The translations under genes and the position numbers were made by a program. DNA of 28,107 nucleotides, taken from the IMG/VR virus record IMGVR_UViG_3300036944_001199, positions 1 through 28,107 of that record. One strand, given 5' to 3'. Numbering within the stretch: the first letter of the stretch is position 1; each line of letters begins with the position of its first letter. The notes beneath the pieces are model-generated. The model had not been told where the DNA came from, searched no databases, and saw nothing but the letters and a program-made list of their open reading frames with translations. This document shows, piece by piece, positions 5,349 through 26,449 of this stretch. The stretch is from a virus.

Positions 5349-5364
5349 AGTATGCTATCACGCC
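5349..5364 (-). promoter_or_regulatory. Phage promoter motif copy (minus strand, drives inverted neck gene)
   Basis: Reads GGCGTGATAGCATACT on the minus strand, matching the motif at all positions except the second (G for T). The hexamer CATACT is -10-like. Predicted +1 near 5342 gives a 20-base leader that contains AGGAGG before ATG 5322. It is back-to-back with the plus-strand copy at 5366-5381, with one base between. Confidence 0.65.
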
Positions 5365-5365
5365 T

Positions 5366-5381
5366 GTCGTGATGCCAAACT
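5366..5381 (+). promoter_or_regulatory. Phage promoter motif copy (drives tail terminator and sheath)
   Basis: GTCGTGATGCCAAACT, a full match. The hexamer CAAACT follows a TGn extended -10. Predicted +1 is 5388, one base before ATG 5389, so the transcript would be almost leaderless. No SD is present in front of ATG 5389 or the alternative ATG 5398. Confidence 0.7.
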
Positions 5382-5388
5382 TGCTCAT

Positions 5389-6225
5389 ATGATTACAATG
5401 ATTCAGCCTATTGCCAGCGGCAATGCCCTCAGAATATTTCTCAGCCCTCCTGCGGGCTCTTTGCGTTGGAGGGTTCTAAGAAATGGATCGGACTCATTTG
5501 CCAATGAATCTGATCCTAATGCAATTATTGCATATGAAGGGGATGATGAGATATTTGTAGACGTATCGTTTCTGCAAAACGAGGTAATGGCATTTTACCG
5601 GGCATATTATTTCGACGGCACATCATGGACGGCCAGCGCAACTGCTAATGGCACGCCTGTTTCTAATTATGAGGAATTCACCACTGATGTAATGTCACTG
5701 CTGAGATCCAGAATTGAAGCTGGGATGAAGGTTGAAGTCGAGAGGGGAAACATTATAGCGGAAGAGCTCGGTTACGTGCAGGTATATACCGCCCCGCCAT
5801 CTCTTGAGGGATCTCTGCGCTTCCCTTTAATAACAATGCATATGATAAATGAAAACTCTGGCATTCGCGGTATTGGTGAGAATATCAGCGGTGATGAGTT
5901 TGATGCCGTAGGGTTTGACTGGTTAGATTCTGAAGGTTGGATCTCAGACGTTCAAATGACGATTGTTTGCTGGTCATTAAACAGTGACGAGCGTATTGAA
6001 TTAAGAAAAGCCTTACGTAGAGTCATTATTGCCAATCTTCCAGTGCTATCATCCCAAGGCATTGAGCAAGTTAACGTTGGCATGCAGGACGTCGATGCAA
6101 TAAACGGTGAGTATGATGCAAATCTGTATCAAGTGGTTTGCAACTTCTCTTGCATAGCTCCAGTTCGAGTGGGAAGTAAAGTTGCGGCTATATCGGACGT
6201 AACAGTTAATGGCACAGGAAATTGA
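5389..6225 (+). CDS. Putative tail terminator/completion protein with N-terminal beta domain
   Basis: A 278-residue protein. The start ATG 5389 lies one base from the predicted transcription start; ATG 5398 is an in-frame alternative and neither has an SD. Residues 1-90 are an Ig or FN3-like beta segment (LRIFLSPPAGSLRWRVLRNG, MAFYRAYYFDGTSWTASATANG). Residues about 95-260 are the conserved half: a helix (VMSLLRSRIEAGM), a central beta sheet, an ERIELRKALRRVIIANL helix and final strands (NLYQVVCNFSCIAPV), the layout of tail terminators of the gpU/Tc1 type. It caps the tail tube and joins it to the neck. It leads a transcription unit that includes the sheath gene. Confidence 0.6.
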   Translation: MITMIQPIASGNALRIFLSPPAGSLRWRVLRNGSDSFANESDPNAIIAYEGDDEIFVDVSFLQNEVMAFYRAYYFDGTSWTASATANGTPVSNYEEFTTDVMSLLRSRIEAGMKVEVERGNIIAEELGYVQVYTAPPSLEGSLRFPLITMHMINENSGIRGIGENISGDEFDAVGFDWLDSEGWISDVQMTIVCWSLNSDERIELRKALRRVIIANLPVLSSQGIEQVNVGMQDVDAINGEYDANLYQVVCNFSCIAPVRVGSKVAAISDVTVNGTGN

Positions 6226-8228: not shown

Positions 8229-8244
8229 GTCGTGATGACAACAT
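8229..8244 (+). promoter_or_regulatory. Phage promoter motif copy (drives tail tube)
   Basis: GTCGTGATGACAACAT, a match to the motif with -10-like hexamer CAACAT. Predicted +1 at 8251 gives a 30-base leader with GAGGAAAA upstream of ATG 8281. Placed directly behind the sheath terminator. Confidence 0.7.
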
Positions 8245-14849: not shown

Positions 14850-14865
14850 GTCGTGATGCCAGAAT
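14850..14865 (+). promoter_or_regulatory. Phage promoter motif copy (drives 14872 gene, leaderless)
   Basis: GTCGTGATGCCAGAAT, a full match, with hexamer CAGAAT close to the sigma70 -10 consensus. Predicted +1 is 14872, the A of the ATG start itself. There is no SD in front of this ATG. Confidence 0.7.
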
Positions 14866-14871
14866 AAAAAT

Positions 14872-16053
14872 ATGCAGAATAAAAACCCACCTAGAGATCA
14901 GAGAGCAGGAGTTCGTCCGATTGCATTTGTTTTGCAAGAGGGCGGGCGCTTTAACTCGCCTGTAACATTGAAGATCAGGCCTGAGGATCTTAATCGAGTT
15001 GAACCTTCCAGAGTTTCGATTACCCAAACTTTGGGGAGAGATGTTGGTGGATGGGTAGATAATTTTGGTGAGGGGCTGCCATCGGTCACTCTATCTGGAC
15101 ATACTGGCTGGCGACAAACATATAGTGGCGGCGTCGACGGGGCCACAGCTTTTGAGCAATTAAATAAATTGGTTGCTCATGATTACCACAAAGCAAAGCA
15201 GCGAGCTATTGATGCAGGGATAGATCCATCCACTATTAAATTGTTATTTGTCGATATGTTAGATAATTTCACATGGTCAGTTGTGCCCAATCAGTTTGTG
15301 CTAAGGCGCTCTAAATCTCGACCTTTATTATTTCAATATCAAATAACCTTGCAGGCCATTGATACTAATATTGACGTGCAATTTAAGGCCGTTCCGTTTA
15401 AAGGGAATGTTCCTGCAGGACTAACTGCGCTAAAGGGAGCTATAGCTACACTAGAGAGCCAAGCCGAGACAATACAAGGCATTATAGCTCAAGCCGTTTC
15501 ATACAAAGACTCTCTTTTGGCTCCAATAGGTAAGACAGTAAAAGATTTTGCCGATTTATCAACTCAGGTTTTTAATATCGTAAATGATACTGTTAAAGAG
15601 GCTCAAGACGGAATATATGGTACCGCAAACTCTTTGATTGAAATAGCATCTGATCTAGCTACTGTTGGCGTAAATATTAATAGAACCATTTCATCTGTTG
15701 CAGGCCTGCCTGCAAGTGTGCAGGCTGCAGTAAGTCGTGTAGCTAGCGCATATAACGAAGTTTTTTGTATTTTCCAAAATTCATTACGCCCTAGAAAAAC
15801 ATTTCAAGATTATGATGGATTATTTGGAGCCTCTAACTGTTCCTCTACCAGTGGAGGCAGGGCGGGCAGCGCGTATTCCAGTCAGAATGCCTTTGCAATG
15901 ATGCAGCTTAATAACGGACCTGTGACAGTTAGTAGCGGAGCATATTCTAGTGTTGCCGCAATCAAGAATGCTGACCCTGTATTATCGCCAATGTCTCTTG
16001 AGGAAGTTGATCGTAACCTTAAAGTTATCAACTCAGGAGTGGAAATAAATTGA
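14872..16053 (+). CDS. Baseplate protein, hub-associated tube-like domain with coiled coils
   Basis: A 393-residue protein starting at ATG 14872 with no SD; the predicted mRNA starts at the same base. Residues about 15-170 are beta-rich, including VTLKIRPEDLNRVEPSRVSITQTLGRDVGGWVDNFGEGLPSVTLSGHTGWR, a pattern seen in XkdP-type and tube-initiator-like baseplate proteins. Residues about 190-300 are helical, with heptad-like TLESQAETIQGIIAQAVSYKD and VFNIVNDTVKEAQDGIYGTANSLIEIASDLATVG. It lies between spike and the gp53/gp25-like gene and probably belongs to the hub or links hub to wedge. Exact family not certain. Confidence 0.62.
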   Translation: MQNKNPPRDQRAGVRPIAFVLQEGGRFNSPVTLKIRPEDLNRVEPSRVSITQTLGRDVGGWVDNFGEGLPSVTLSGHTGWRQTYSGGVDGATAFEQLNKLVAHDYHKAKQRAIDAGIDPSTIKLLFVDMLDNFTWSVVPNQFVLRRSKSRPLLFQYQITLQAIDTNIDVQFKAVPFKGNVPAGLTALKGAIATLESQAETIQGIIAQAVSYKDSLLAPIGKTVKDFADLSTQVFNIVNDTVKEAQDGIYGTANSLIEIASDLATVGVNINRTISSVAGLPASVQAAVSRVASAYNEVFCIFQNSLRPRKTFQDYDGLFGASNCSSTSGGRAGSAYSSQNAFAMMQLNNGPVTVSSGAYSSVAAIKNADPVLSPMSLEEVDRNLKVINSGVEIN

Positions 16054-16667
16054 ATGAATTTGAACGCTTAGAGCCGTCATACAGGCTTGCTGAGACGTAT
16101 TTTGGTGACGACCTTCAAGCTGTTTCTGCTAGAGAGCTGGGTGACGCTAATCGATGGGCGGAATTGGTGTGGCTGAATAATTTAAGGCATCCATATCTAA
16201 CTGATGACGCTCTATTAGCAAATGAATCAGTTAGGCTTAATGGAACGTTAATAAAAATTCCAGCGCCAGTTGGAGTTTACACTGATGATGCTAGTCGTGG
16301 TCAAGTGTATGAAAAAGACTGCATTCTAACTAATAAACTGCTTTCAGTTAACGCTGGCGGTGATCTTGCTGTGGCTTCTGGTGTGAAGAACCTGACTCAG
16401 CAGCTGAAGCACAGAATAGACACTCCTAAAGGGCAGGCTCGACGCCACCCTGATTACGGTTGCTTGGTGTGGCGCCTAAAGGGATCTGTCACTGGGCCAA
16501 CGGCTGAAACCCTTGGCAGCGAATACGTAAAATCTACACTCATTGCTGATTATAGAGTTTCATCTGTTGTTAGTAGCTCTGCAATAACAAATGGTGACGC
16601 AATCATGATTACAGCAAAAGTTGAGTCAATCGAAGGGGCTGGCATAGATATTAGCAATCTGTCGTGA
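16050..16667 (+). CDS. Baseplate wedge protein, gp53-like (LysM) plus gp25-like fusion
   Basis: A 205-residue protein starting at TTG 16050, which overlaps the TGA of the previous gene; AGGAG (16035-16039) precedes it. Residues about 8-75 read RLAETYFGDDLQAVSARELGDANRWAELVWLNNLRHPYLTDD-LKIPAPVG style, a LysM/gp53-like module with the typical W..L..LN..r.PY. Residues about 95-205 match gp25/gpW-like wedge proteins: LTQQLKHRIDTPKGQARRHPDYGCLVWRLKGSVTG, then a helix and a final beta pair. In T4 these are two separate wedge proteins. The stop codon TGA lies inside the next promoter motif. Confidence 0.75.
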   Translation: MNEFERLEPSYRLAETYFGDDLQAVSARELGDANRWAELVWLNNLRHPYLTDDALLANESVRLNGTLIKIPAPVGVYTDDASRGQVYEKDCILTNKLLSVNAGGDLAVASGVKNLTQQLKHRIDTPKGQARRHPDYGCLVWRLKGSVTGPTAETLGSEYVKSTLIADYRVSSVVSSSAITNGDAIMITAKVESIEGAGIDISNLS

Positions 16668-16676
16668 TGACAAACT
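16661..16676 (+). promoter_or_regulatory. Phage promoter motif copy (drives gpJ-like gene)
   Basis: GTCGTGATGACAAACT, a full match that contains the TGA stop (16665-16667) of the previous gene. Predicted +1 near 16683, giving a 32-base leader to TTG 16715. Confidence 0.68.
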
Positions 16677-18936: not shown

Positions 18937-18952
18937 GTCGTGATGCCAGACT
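18937..18952 (+). promoter_or_regulatory. Phage promoter motif copy (drives 18969 gene)
   Basis: GTCGTGATGCCAGACT, a full match. Predicted +1 near 18959 gives a leader of only about 10 bases, beginning at the SD AGGGGG (18958-18963) before ATG 18969. This spacing is the tightest test of the proposed initiation point. Confidence 0.68.
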
Positions 18953-22620: not shown

Positions 22621-23252
22621 TGATAGACAACAGGACTCAACACCTAGACCTGCCTCTTCCAGATGTAAATAATCAACTGGAAGATGATGTTGTCAGATTG
22701 CAAGAGTCATTTAATGCAATAGACACTCACGCGCAAAGCACGGACTCTAGTATAGAGTCTATTAATGAAGAACTTAATGAGCTTGGTAATGCATCATCAA
22801 AGACAGTGACGGCCTCACCGCTAGATCAGTCGGCAGGGAAATTACTGCAAACTGGTGATGGCGGACTGATGGGCTCTGCAATAGATGGATTTGCAAACGT
22901 AACTATTGATGGCAATGTAAGAAACGCTTTGCCGGGAATTATTTTATCTTTTTCAGGAACAGAAATAGAATGTACCGCGGCAAACTTGCCATCGTTAGGC
23001 GGCGCTGACACAACATCAAGGACATGGATAGTAAAATCATCCGGATCGCCATTATTGCTGCTTATTGAAGCTGTTGAAATACTTGGTTTAACTGGTGGCG
23101 CTGGACGTTCTTTTTCATCCGTAAAGCAGGATGCATCATGGTCTCCGTGGATTGAAAGTTTTAACGGTAGCAATAAACCTTTAATAGTAGATGTGATCGG
23201 TCTAACAGGTCGATTAGATGAAATTGAAACATACGCATTAGCGGGGCTGTAA
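22620..23252 (+). CDS. Short tail fibre with coiled coil and pyocin-knob-like end
   Basis: A 210-residue protein starting at ATG 22620 (TAATG overlap). Residues about 15-60 (NQLEDDVVRLQESFNAIDTHAQSTDSSIESINEELNELG) are a coiled-coil trimer region. Residues about 110-185 end in RTWIVKSSGSPLLLLIEAVEILGLTGGAGRSFSSVKQDASWSPWIESFNG, which resembles the pyocin-knob module of Pseudomonas-type and phage fibres (W..W with a conserved variable face). The pattern suggests a trimeric fibre. The last 20 residues form another short helix (LIVDVIGLTGRLDEIETYA). It is coupled to the next gene through TAATG at 23250-23254. Confidence 0.65.
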   Translation: MIDNRTQHLDLPLPDVNNQLEDDVVRLQESFNAIDTHAQSTDSSIESINEELNELGNASSKTVTASPLDQSAGKLLQTGDGGLMGSAIDGFANVTIDGNVRNALPGIILSFSGTEIECTAANLPSLGGADTTSRTWIVKSSGSPLLLLIEAVEILGLTGGAGRSFSSVKQDASWSPWIESFNGSNKPLIVDVIGLTGRLDEIETYALAGL

Positions 23253-24514
23253 TGACTGCGATAACCACAAATTTAAAAACTCAGGTTCAAGCACAAATTG
23301 ATGCAGCTGATAGCTCTACAAGCTTAAAAGATCTTCTTGTTATCAGAAAATCTGCTGAAGGGCTAAGGTGCGATGAGTCTAACTTAGACACGTTGATGAG
23401 CGCAGCTATAGCGTCAATGAGCCCAAGCACTGCGCTAAAGGATTTATTGCTAGGTAATAAGGCCAGTGGTCTGCCGGGGCCTGTTAGCGTTCCTATTGGC
23501 GGATCTACTCCACTGCTGGCATCATTCCCGAGTCTTGTATCTATTGACGGTGCTTCATACCTTAAAAGCGGATATTATTTAACCACTGGATTTGATGAGT
23601 CATTAATGCCGTATATGAGCGGCGGAAGAGTTTGGGCAAATAACCCAGCCAACATTATTGGTTCAAATACTATTCAGGCCATAAAACATGATAACGGATT
23701 ATGGGTTGTTGCTGGCGATAACGGAATGCTATCAACATCTCCTGACGGAGTGACATGGACACCTAGAACGTCAGGCTTTGGTACGACGCGCATAAAGGAT
23801 GTGTCTTTTGGTAATGGTCTATGGGTTGCTGTTGGCGATAACGGAATGCTATCAACATCTCCTGACGGAGTGACATGGACACCTAGAACGTCAGGCTTTG
23901 GTACGGAGATCATTTCTGCGGTTGCTTACGCTAATAACTTGTGGGTTGCCTCCGGTACTAACGGAAAGCTGTCAACATCTCCTGACGGAGTGACATGGAC
24001 ACCTAGAACGTCAGGCGCTAGTACAAATTTAGGTGCTATTGTTTACGGGAAAGGGGTTTGGGTTGTCGCAGTACAAACAGGCGCTCCAATTATTTCTTAT
24101 GACGGAATAACTTGGTCGGCGGCTTATGTTTCTGGTACAACGACAAGCTTTACCACCGTGGCGTTTAACGGAGAAATATTTGTTGGTTGCTCAGGAACCA
24201 ACATTGGTTATTCTGTAGATGGTTGGTATTGGGCGCCTGTTGCACCAAATATACCAGTTGCCGCAGTAAATAAAGTAATTTGGAATAAAAAAGATTTGTT
24301 TGTTTTTACGTCATCTAGTGGAGGAATGCCTATTTATACGTGCGATGCTAATTTAAAAAATTTCAAATCAAGGGCGAACACTTCTTCATCTGTTGCAATA
24401 GGTACAGATGGTCTAGTTTGCATTGCAGGCATTAGTGCAGGCACTTACCGAAAAAGTGAAGCAGTATTATGTTTAGAAAGCGAAAATAAAAATGATTTCT
24501 TGAGGATCTTATAA
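23252..24514 (+). CDS. Tail fibre/receptor-binding protein with seven propeller-like repeats
   Basis: A 420-residue protein starting at ATG 23252. After a helical N-terminus containing a duplicated T-(S/A)-LKDLL phrase (residues ~25 and ~67), residues about 130-420 hold roughly seven units of about 40 residues. Units 1-3 share the phrase LSTSPDGVTWTPRTSG; units 4-7 diverge (IISYDGITWSAAYV, IGYSVDGWYWAPVAPNIPV, and so on). The Ser-x-Asp-Gly-x-x-Trp core resembles BNR/sialidase-type blades, and seven blades would make a closed propeller. Such domains often bind receptor sugars. Three repeats are almost identical in DNA (see repeat entry). Receptor binding is an inference from fibre position and fold. 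Confidence 0.7.
   Translation: MTAITTNLKTQVQAQIDAADSSTSLKDLLVIRKSAEGLRCDESNLDTLMSAAIASMSPSTALKDLLLGNKASGLPGPVSVPIGGSTPLLASFPSLVSIDGASYLKSGYYLTTGFDESLMPYMSGGRVWANNPANIIGSNTIQAIKHDNGLWVVAGDNGMLSTSPDGVTWTPRTSGFGTTRIKDVSFGNGLWVAVGDNGMLSTSPDGVTWTPRTSGFGTEIISAVAYANNLWVASGTNGKLSTSPDGVTWTPRTSGASTNLGAIVYGKGVWVVAVQTGAPIISYDGITWSAAYVSGTTTSFTTVAFNGEIFVGCSGTNIGYSVDGWYWAPVAPNIPVAAVNKVIWNKKDLFVFTSSSGGMPIYTCDANLKNFKSRANTSSSVAIGTDGLVCIAGISAGTYRKSEAVLCLESENKNDFLRIL
23701..24024 (+). repeat. Three near-identical 120-bp tandem coding repeats
   Basis: Units begin at 23701, 23821 and 23941, exactly 120 bases apart (40 codons). A run of about 50 bases, including TCAACATCTCCTGACGGAGT and the following 30 or more bases, is identical in all three. 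Units 1 and 2 are identical over most of 84 bases. Near-identity at silent sites means recent duplication or conversion. Confidence 0.9.
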
Positions 24515-24926: not shown

Positions 24927-25346
24927 ATGGAAAAAATAAAAGTTATTTTTGCGAAAGGCCGCCACCCATATAGTTATTTAATCAGAGTCAGATACCAATC
25001 AAGATGGTCCCACGTCGGGATCATTATTGATGGGATGGTGCATGAAGCTGAAAATCCGCAGGGCGTAATAAAGACGCCGCTGAAAGAATTTATAAAGCGC
25101 TATGGCGAGGATCGGATTGCATTTGCTGATTGTTACGTCGAGCCGGGATGGCAAGATAGAGCCAAAGAAATGCTTGGTCTAGGTTATGATTTTTGGGGTG
25201 CGTTTGGAATGGGAATTTGTACCACAAAACTAGACGATCCAGATAAAGTTTGGTGCAGCCATCATGTTGGGTACGTCCTCGGAACATTTAGACCAGAGCG
25301 GCTGCTTAAACTTAGTCCTGAGCACATCTGGATGGTTAGCAAGTAA
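24927..25346 (+). CDS. Permuted papain-like (NlpC/P60 superfamily) enzyme
   Basis: A 139-residue protein starting two bases after the previous stop. The catalytic order is circularly permuted: His29 in WSHVGIIIDG, Glu40 in VHEAEN, then Cys110 in KVWCSHHVGYVLG. This matches YiiX/LRAT-type permuted papain folds, which include amidases, peptidases and acyltransferases. There is no signal peptide or membrane segment. It lies between the fibre genes and the lysis cassette, so it may be a virion peptidoglycan enzyme, a lysis helper or an enzyme acting on lipids; the sequence cannot decide. The three predicted catalytic residues are all present, so it is likely active. Confidence 0.75.
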   Translation: MEKIKVIFAKGRHPYSYLIRVRYQSRWSHVGIIIDGMVHEAENPQGVIKTPLKEFIKRYGEDRIAFADCYVEPGWQDRAKEMLGLGYDFWGAFGMGICTTKLDDPDKVWCSHHVGYVLGTFRPERLLKLSPEHIWMVSK

Positions 25347-25377
25347 AACCAAGACGCAGACGTAGCCGTCAATGACA

Positions 25378-25393
25378 GTCGTGATGACAAAAT
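25378..25393 (+). promoter_or_regulatory. Phage promoter motif copy (drives lysis cassette)
   Basis: GTCGTGATGACAAAAT, a full match; hexamer CAAAAT. Predicted +1 near 25400 lies at the far end of the 5' arm of the hairpin below, so transcripts from here would lack nearly all of that arm. Leader about 22 bases to ATG 25422. Confidence 0.7.
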
Positions 25394-25420
25394 GCCCTTA
25401 ATGACAATTGAGGGCATTTT
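25389..25420 (+). promoter_or_regulatory. Hairpin that sequesters the holin Shine-Dalgarno
   Basis: A 13-bp stem (25389-25401 with 25408-25420, one G-T pair) and a 6-nt loop. The 3' arm contains the SD GAGGG (25410-25414) of the holin, 7 bases before ATG 25422. In read-through mRNA the SD is buried; its TTTT tail also permits some termination. Confidence 0.7.
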
Positions 25421-25421
25421 C

Positions 25422-25742
25422 ATGAGTAACTTTGAAAGTTTGAGCAAACGATTAAAAGCGTTAATCGATAAATCCGCGCTGATCCTGATCATTCCAGCGC
25501 TAATTGCAATGTATTTCATAGATCCAGCTATGGCAAAAACGCTAGTAGACTGGACTGTTTTCGCACCAATTATGGCGGGGATTGCTGTAGTTGTATCTCG
25601 CATCGTATTTCATAGAATCGAGCTAACCAAGCTGATTGTATTAACCGAAAAAGGCAATATGGCGGCAGCCGTTCTAGCATCCGCTATAGTCTTGTTTGTT
25701 GCTATCGTTTTTATGGCGTTAGTCATGTGGGTTAAGGCGTAG
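25422..25742 (+). CDS. Putative holin
   Basis: A 106-residue protein. ATG 25422 is chosen over the in-frame ATG 25392 because the latter is inside the promoter/hairpin and has no SD, while GAGGG precedes 25422. There are three predicted membrane segments, about residues 18-34 (SALILIIPALIAMYFID), 45-62 (VFAPIMAGIAVVVSRIVF) and 80-103 (MAAAVLASAIVLFVAIVFMALVMW), with Lys/Arg loops between. Size, topology and place directly before an exported endolysin fit a holin, which times lysis by depolarising the inner membrane. Not matched to a named holin family. Confidence 0.75.
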   Translation: MSNFESLSKRLKALIDKSALILIIPALIAMYFIDPAMAKTLVDWTVFAPIMAGIAVVVSRIVFHRIELTKLIVLTEKGNMAAAVLASAIVLFVAIVFMALVMWVKA

Positions 25743-25744
25743 TC

Positions 25745-26449
25745 ATGAAACTGATTATTTTGCTGGCAATATTTAGCTTTAATGCTCTTGCTCAAGATCT
25801 GCCTTTAAGGGCTGCAGAGCATTTGCCGACGCTATTATGTTCTCAGCAAAAAATATGGCCAGATGCACCTATACCGTCTTTTTTAGCTTCTCAGGTCGAG
25901 CAAGAAAGCTGTATAAGCCTAACTCACTCCAAATGCTGGAATCCAAATGTTCAGCTAAAAACTAGCAGAGAGTGGGGCCGAGGCTTAGGTCAGGTTACAA
26001 CAGCATATAACTCCGATGGCACTGTTAGATTTGATAAGCAAGAAGAGCTTAGGCTAAAGTTTCCATCGTTACGTGGGTGGACTACCGATCGGTGGGCTGA
26101 TCCAGTATATCAATTAACTGCTATTGTCGAGATGGATCATTCGATATACAGAAGGCAAAAAGGCGCGGCGTCAGAGATAGATCAGCTCAGCTTTACGCTC
26201 TCAGCTTACAATGGCGGCGAAGGAGGGTTATTGCAAGACAGGAGGTTATGCGCTAACACTGACAGCTGCGATCCTAGCAAATGGGCAGGCAATGTAGAAT
26301 TCACTAGCTTAAAATCTAAAATGCCAAAGCCAGGATATCGTCAGTCCTTTTTCCACATAAACCGTGAATATGTCTCAAATGTCATTTATGTGAGACGCGA
26401 AAAGTACATTGATTTTTTTAAAAAAGGGCAGGGGACGCGATGCAAGTAA
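25745..26449 (+). CDS. Endolysin: exported lytic transglycosylase
   Basis: A 234-residue protein starting two bases after the holin stop. A Sec-type signal peptide (MKLIILLAIFSFNALA, probable cleavage after Ala16) means the host exports it. The catalytic Glu54 lies in ASQVEQESCISLTHSKCWNP, the SLT-type Glu-Ser motif; RGLGQVT and FTLSAYNGGEGGLL follow, as usual in goose-type/SLT enzymes. The product cuts the glycan by forming anhydro-muramic ends. Several cysteines (Cys32, 56, 64 and near residues 170-180) suit periplasmic disulfides. It is unlike typical cytoplasmic endolysins because it does not need holin holes to cross. Confidence 0.85.
   Translation: MKLIILLAIFSFNALAQDLPLRAAEHLPTLLCSQQKIWPDAPIPSFLASQVEQESCISLTHSKCWNPNVQLKTSREWGRGLGQVTTAYNSDGTVRFDKQEELRLKFPSLRGWTTDRWADPVYQLTAIVEMDHSIYRRQKGAASEIDQLSFTLSAYNGGEGGLLQDRRLCANTDSCDPSKWAGNVEFTSLKSKMPKPGYRQSFFHINREYVSNVIYVRREKYIDFFKKGQGTRCK

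What the first reader, a model, noticed from the sequence alone, without database searches (positions are those of the whole stretch)
25378..25424. Late promoter inside a hairpin that hides the holin SD
The 13-bp stem buries GAGGG. Transcripts reading through from upstream would be silent for holin, but transcripts starting at predicted +1 (about 25400) lose almost the whole 5' arm and free the SD. This is the logic of the T4 lysozyme (e) gene leader and would restrict holin to the late promoter, setting lysis timing.
Basis: partly seen in the sequence, partly recalled or inferred. Interest (0 to 1): 0.72.

Follow-up and report, generated by a model that had tools for sequence, protein, structure and literature searches.

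The report
Phage promoter built into a hairpin
Just before the gene that opens the host cell, this phage has a promoter sitting inside a hairpin that hides the gene's ribosome-binding site, so probably only messages started at that promoter make the lysis protein; the same promoter, reused across a family of phages, often begins messages exactly at the start codon instead.

Summary
The hairpin is real: a 13-bp stem (25390-25402/25407-25419, 4-nt loop, fold z = -5.3) with the holin SD GAGGG (25410-25414) in its 3' arm. GTCGTGATGACAAAAT (25378-25393) is one of six copies, all on the + strand at gene boundaries. It belongs to a late-promoter family, GTCGTGA-YGN-CANNMT, found in about ten related ~90-kb myophages. 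Of 82 family sites, 38 have ATG exactly 6 or 7 nt after the -10 (leaderless starts), which places +1 at 25400 here. Initiation there removes 10 of the 13 nt of the 5' arm. Eleven of 14 homologous holin leaders have such a gate with compensating stem changes; calculated RBS opening cost falls from 9-20 to 3-7 kcal/mol. The other three have an ordinary terminator upstream of the promoter instead. The logic is that of the T4 e/soc/49/I-TevI leaders, with a different promoter in unrelated phages. In seven leaders the hairpin is also terminator-like. Two corrections: the gate is not holin-specific, and upstream transcripts come from the same late-promoter class, so it insulates holin from read-through rather than demonstrably timing lysis. 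No RNA data; mechanism inferred.

The parts
25378..25393 (+). Late promoter element GTCGTGATGACAAAAT, predicted -22..-7: GTCGTGA block 25378-25384, extended -10 TGA 25385-25387, -10 CAAAAT 25388-25393
   Evidence: Six + strand intergenic copies in the window; family of 82 sites in 10 phages, reversed control 0-1 per genome
25400..25400 (+). Predicted transcription start (+1, A)
   Evidence: 6 nt after the -10, the position at which 27 of 82 family sites have the A of ATG
25390..25402 (+). 5' arm of the hairpin; 25390-25399 lie upstream of +1 and are absent from promoter-born RNA
   Evidence: Fold
25407..25419 (+). 3' arm of the hairpin, holding the SD and the short U tract 25416-25419
   Evidence: Fold; terminator-like when the stem is trimmed to GCCC..GGGC followed by ATTTTCAT
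25379..25384 (+). UCGUGA of the promoter block, predicted to pair with UCAUGA 25420-25425, which contains the holin AUG
   Evidence: Fold of the long RNA; similar pairing in L001, G002-G004 and PHB04
25410..25414 (+). Holin Shine-Dalgarno sequence GAGGG
   Evidence: Sequence, 7 nt before ATG 25422
25422..25742 (+). Holin, 106 aa
   Evidence: phrog_8226, E 3.7e-27; homologues align from this ATG
25745..26449 (+). Endolysin, 234 aa, downstream in the same unit
   Evidence: phrog_669, E 1.6e-20
5366..5381 (+). Second copy of the promoter; ATG 5389 at +2 (leaderless, 278 aa)
8229..8244 (+). Promoter copy after a terminator-like hairpin; SD-led ATG 8281; no gate
14850..14865 (+). Promoter copy; ATG 14872 at +1 (leaderless, 393 aa)
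16661..16676 (+). Promoter copy before the baseplate J gene; no gate
18937..18952 (+). Promoter copy before ATG 18969 (baseplate wedge); a likely source of read-through into holin

Best explanation
25378-25424 is a late promoter laid across the 5' arm of a hairpin that covers the holin ribosome-binding site. RNA that reads in from the tail genes contains both arms. It folds, burying the SD and part of the start codon, and because the stem is followed by a short U tract it may also terminate there. RNA begun at 25400 lacks 10 of the 13 nt of the 5' arm, cannot form the hairpin, and presents GAGGG and AUG 25422 in an open 22-nt leader. Holin is then made essentially only from its own promoter and is insulated from upstream transcription. 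Shown by sequence: the promoter family, the start register, the hairpin and its conservation. Inferred: actual initiation at 25400, reduced translation of read-through RNA, partial termination, and the benefit to lysis control.
For: Promoter family with strand and intergenic bias, re-found in two genomes not used to define it. Start register fixed by 38 of 82 sites with ATG at 6-7 nt, several being annotated starts. Hairpin z -5.3. RBS opening cost 18.5 kcal/mol in long RNA, 4.7 in short RNA. Eleven of 14 holin leaders gated; own arms pair at 100% of positions -6..-1, arms exchanged between phages at 72%, with compensatory types G-C/C-G/A-T. The three ungated leaders have an upstream terminator instead. 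A perfect complement of -6..-1 lies downstream in 15 of 87 non-leaderless promoters against 1.15 expected, and in 8 of 173 leaderless ones against 4.4.
Against: No transcript ends or expression data. No sigma factor or RNA polymerase to read the element was identified. The promoter element itself could be some other repeated signal. PHB04 has its SD outside the stem. Equilibrium folding may not apply to translated, transcribing RNA. Many leaders are related, so I count about seven independent cases.
Confidence: 0.74

Rival explanations
1. The hairpin is mainly an intrinsic terminator for the upstream tail/amidase transcripts. It abuts the holin gene for compactness; the SD in its 3' arm and the U tract as SD-AUG spacer are by-products.
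For: Seven of 14 holin leaders have a terminator-like hairpin over the promoter, with U tracts of 6-7 in Entero, Yers, Mec66, G004 and PHB04; four others have a terminator just upstream, and no leader has both. In PHB04 the SD is outside the stem.
Against: ST4, G002 and G005 keep a hairpin over the RBS without a U tract. The window's own U tract is only four long and the terminator scan does not list it. Gated sites in other contigs often lack a U tract, e.g. L226, L214, L166.
Confidence: 0.17
2. The holin has two starts, as in lambda S: a leaderless start at ATG 25401 (+2) adds MTIEGIF to the 106-aa holin begun at 25422, and the hairpin sets the ratio of the two products.
For: ATG 25401 is at +2, the N7 register used by leaderless genes, and is in frame, adding MTIEGIF.
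Against: One extra T in the otherwise identical L001 leader makes that frame end after 9 codons. No other holin leader has an ATG at +1/+2.
Confidence: 0.06
3. GTCGTGATG is not a promoter but a repeated RNA or DNA signal (processing site, operator), and the hairpin is unrelated to transcription start.
For: No cognate factor found; no -35 element.
Against: A at -11, T at -7 and YG at -15/-14 match the key positions of an extended -10; ATG sits at a fixed 6-7 nt from it; A is the commonest base at +1 even in sites without ATG (24 of 44).
Confidence: 0.07

Closest known systems
T4 lysozyme (e) leader and its kin soc, gene 49, I-TevI (PMC3014915, PMC2988022)
   Same: Long RNA hides the SD in a hairpin; a late promoter immediately upstream starts RNA without the 5' part of the helix, freeing the SD
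   Different: Different promoter (T4 late promoters are TATAAATA read by gp55, from general knowledge); unrelated phages; the upstream RNA appears to come from the same late-promoter class rather than early RNA; the hairpin is often also terminator-like; the device recurs at many genes and phages
Intrinsic terminators overlapping a downstream gene start
   Same: GC stem followed by a U tract in seven holin leaders
   Different: The 5' arm is made of the promoter's -10/+1 gap, so RNA from that promoter cannot form the terminator; some leaders lack the U tract
Leaderless mRNAs (e.g. lambda cI from PRM, from general knowledge)
   Same: AUG at or next to +1, no SD
   Different: Here a whole late-promoter family of structural genes appears to use them; the holin site is an SD-led exception

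Membership tests
T4 e-type gated leader (as a mechanism) | SD (and/or AUG) paired in RNA that reads in from upstream | tested here: met
   GAGGG in the 13-bp stem; opening cost 18.5 kcal/mol
T4 e-type gated leader (as a mechanism) | Promoter placed so that its RNA lacks the 5' part of the helix | tested here: met
   By prediction only: +1 at 25400 from the family register; 5' end not mapped
T4 e-type gated leader (as a mechanism) | Strongly lower translation of the long RNA | not testable with these tools
   Needs expression assays
T4 e-type gated leader (as a mechanism) | Read-through RNA belongs to an earlier temporal class | tested here: inconclusive
   Upstream promoters 16661 and 18937 are the same family; no time-course data
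T4 late gene set (by lineage and promoter) | T4-type late promoter (TATAAATA) in a T4-like phage | tested here: not met
   Element is GTCGTGA-YGN-CANNMT; sheath relatives are Dolphis, ST4, PHB04
Intrinsic terminator | GC-rich stem, short loop, run of T directly after | tested here: inconclusive
   Not listed by the scan; passes a looser test with ATTTTCAT; clearer in Entero, Yers, PHB04
Lambda S-type dual-start holin | Two in-frame starts conserved among relatives | tested here: not met
   Frame broken in L001; no upstream in-frame ATG at +1/+2 in other leaders
Any Rfam family | Match above gathering score | tested here: not met
   Only sub-threshold chance-level hits

The most novel reading that the evidence does not exclude
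A widespread phage late-promoter family (GTCGTGA-YGN-CANNMT) couples translation to the mRNA 5' end across the late genes. Genes are either leaderless (AUG at +1/+2) or carry an anti-SD arm in the -10/+1 gap of their own promoter, so each is translated well only from RNA begun at its own promoter and hardly from read-through RNA. The holin gate is one instance of this general insulation.
Probability: 0.5. Interest if true: 0.82.

Novelty: new variant of a known kind. Interest (0 to 1): 0.7.

Why it matters
The T4 e, soc, 49 and I-TevI leaders were isolated examples in one phage group. Here the same logic recurs, with a different promoter, before the holins of phages of Aeromonas, Yersinia, Enterobacter, Morganella and Bordetella, and before other late genes. 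With the leaderless starts it makes a testable case for late gene expression keyed to the 5' end of each message. Holin dose is known to govern lysis, so insulating it from tail-gene read-through is a plausible reason for selection. It also gives exact predicted 5' ends and suggests corrected gene starts in some annotated genomes (e.g. the ST4 portal gene).

Tried and rejected
Sigma-70 scan of the region: no promoter found; the element is atypical. Sigma-54 (-24/-12) reading: spacing and bases do not fit (by inspection). Holin starts at 25392 or 25401: rejected on the frame break in L001 and on homologues. A short leader peptide from GTG 25381: no SD and not conserved (by inspection). Phage sigma or single-subunit RNA polymerase as cognate factor: no Pfam hit above cut-off; the RNA-polymerase search rang in no control genome, so its absence is not shown. 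Rfam: nothing above threshold. A genome-contig scan for prophage relatives: none. L283, found by pattern, looks like a chance match with no gated gene start. A simple fold test was also skewed for leaderless sites (52 of 173 at p<=0.05), apparently because -6..-1 often pairs back with the promoter motif, so the specific downstream-complement count was used instead. Paper searches found no description of this promoter, but most subscription papers are not held.

Full report
What is there. The window is a 28,107-base fragment of a tailed-phage record. It carries tail and baseplate genes followed by a holin (phrog_8226) and an endolysin. Its sheath protein is closest to those of ~90-kb myophages Dolphis, Jeremy, ST4 and PHB04. 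Between the 139-aa amidase-like gene (ends 25346) and holin ATG 25422 lies the reported hairpin: 25390-25402 paired with 25407-25419, with GAGGG at 25410-25414 in the 3' arm. The fold of 25370-25440 is -23.9 kcal/mol, z -5.3.

The promoter. A sigma-70 scan finds nothing at this place. However, GTCGTGATGM occurs six times in the window, always on the + strand and at gene boundaries: 5366, 8229, 14850, 16661, 18937 and 25378. The full element GTCGTGAYGVCANNMT gives 10 matches with up to two mismatches against 1.03 expected. The same element, mostly on the structural-gene strand, occurs repeatedly (6-15 matches with up to one mismatch) in each longer relative; the reversed control pattern gives 0-1. 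Mecenats66 has no close match except a variant before its holin. The element was found again in Dolphis and Touem01, which were not used to define it. Over 82 sites all information lies at -22..-7: GTCGTGA, then YG at -15/-14, then CA at -12/-11, M at -8, T at -7. This is an extended -10 with an unusual upstream block and no -35. I infer a promoter read by host RNA polymerase with a phage factor, or with a phage sigma; no factor was found.

The start point. Twenty-seven of the 82 sites have ATG exactly 6 nt after the -10 and 11 have it at 7 nt; no other spacing exceeds 7 sites. Of these 38 ORFs, 34 are at least 40 codons long, and many are orthologous (MTDxALEV portal, MNxDEQLLADIP protease, MITxIQPxxIGNALR). 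Several are the annotated CDS starts: Yersinia phage 10896, ST4 60253, Dolphis 4551, 8005 and 14258. These genes are therefore very probably leaderless.

The gate. With +1 at 25400, 10 of the 13 nt of the 5' arm are never transcribed. The calculated cost of opening the RBS falls from 18.5 to 4.7 kcal/mol. Homologous holin leaders from relatives (holins 37-93% identical to this one; 44-65% for the metagenomic ones) show the same register. The six bases between -10 and +1 are GCCCTT, GCCCTC, ACCCTC, GCACCT, GCCTCT, GCGGTT, CCGCTT or CTGCTT, each fully paired with its own 3' arm. Arms exchanged between phages pair fully in 17% of cases. Eleven of 12 leaders tested have p of at most 0.026 when the free promoter positions are randomised. 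In G005 the 5' arm is a different part of the promoter, again upstream of +1. The lineages are related, so I count about seven independent cases.

Not holin-specific. Equivalent gates precede other genes: ST4 45873, Entero 12879 and 69916, PHB04 702, G003 L090 and L094, G004 L107, Dolphis 28081 and 36146, and independent contigs such as L226, L145, L230, L214, L166 and L202. Over all sites collected, a perfect complement of -6..-1 lies downstream in 15 of 87 non-leaderless promoters (1.15 expected) but in 8 of 173 leaderless ones (4.4 expected). In the window itself, 8229, 16661 and 28042(-) have no gate.

Terminator or gate? In seven leaders (window, L001, Entero, Yers, PHB04, Mec66, G004) the hairpin is also terminator-like. 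In G003, L019, L273, L144 and the lysis-region promoter of Touem01 a terminator lies upstream of the promoter instead; no leader has both. ST4, G002 and G005 have a hairpin over the RBS with no terminator. The three holin leaders without a gate (L019, L273, L144) all have the upstream terminator. This substitution pattern is the best evidence for what is selected: protection of holin from read-through of the tail genes, by termination, by RBS hiding, or both.

Comparison. Published accounts of T4 e, soc, 49 and I-TevI describe the same logic: long RNAs hide the RBS, and a late promoter immediately upstream starts RNA without the 5' part of the helix, with about 100-fold less lysozyme from long RNA (PMC3014915; PMC2988022). 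It works like these. It is not a member of the T4 set by promoter or lineage, and its upstream transcripts are late-class as far as can be seen. The claim that it sets lysis timing is therefore untested.

Limits. No transcription or translation data exist for any of these phages here. Folding was at equilibrium on isolated RNA. Leaders are phylogenetically related. The window's U tract is short. Literature coverage is partial.

Noticed in passing
window 5366-5391 and 14850-14874; many sites in relatives: Late promoters whose predicted +1 falls on or one base before the ATG, with no SD: apparent leaderless late mRNAs for structural genes, 38 of 82 family sites.
   Followed up: partly
window 5349-5381: Back-to-back divergent promoters: GGCGTGATAGCATACT on the - strand (5364-5349) for the - strand gene 5322-4495 and GTCGTGATGCCAAACT on the + strand; a similar pair lies in the Yersinia, Enterobacter, G003, G005 and Dolphis phages.
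   Followed up: partly
window 28042-27978 (- strand): A promoter variant GTCGTGATAGCATTAT followed by a terminator hairpin (28017-28000) before a 67-aa gene with two CxxC pairs; Dolphis and Touem01 carry a gene annotated TraR at this place. A possible attenuated leader; no Pfam match.
   Followed up: no
window 25378 and L001 about 2955: Near-identity between the window and L001 begins almost exactly at the promoter (GTCGTGATGAC...); the genes upstream differ completely, so the module boundary lies at the promoter.
   Followed up: no
window 24927-25346: Permuted papain-like (Peptidase_C92/YiiX-like, just below the Pfam cut-off) gene directly before the holin promoter, absent from that place in L001.
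   Followed up: no
window 23689-24048: Three 120-nt direct repeats inside the 420-aa gene 23252-24514, 100/84/68% identical to the reference copy.
   Followed up: no
leaderless sites in relatives, e.g. L080, L089: In many leaderless promoters -6..-1 is complementary to the promoter's own ACGCC/TGNCA stretch (e.g. GACGCCaccatGGCGTC-ATG), which could hide the AUG in read-through RNA or be a DNA dyad.
   Followed up: no
OL614104.1 (Mecenats66) 82725-82651: Weak sigma-70 region 4-like match (E 7.9e-4, below the Pfam cut-off) in the one relative whose promoter element has diverged.
   Followed up: no
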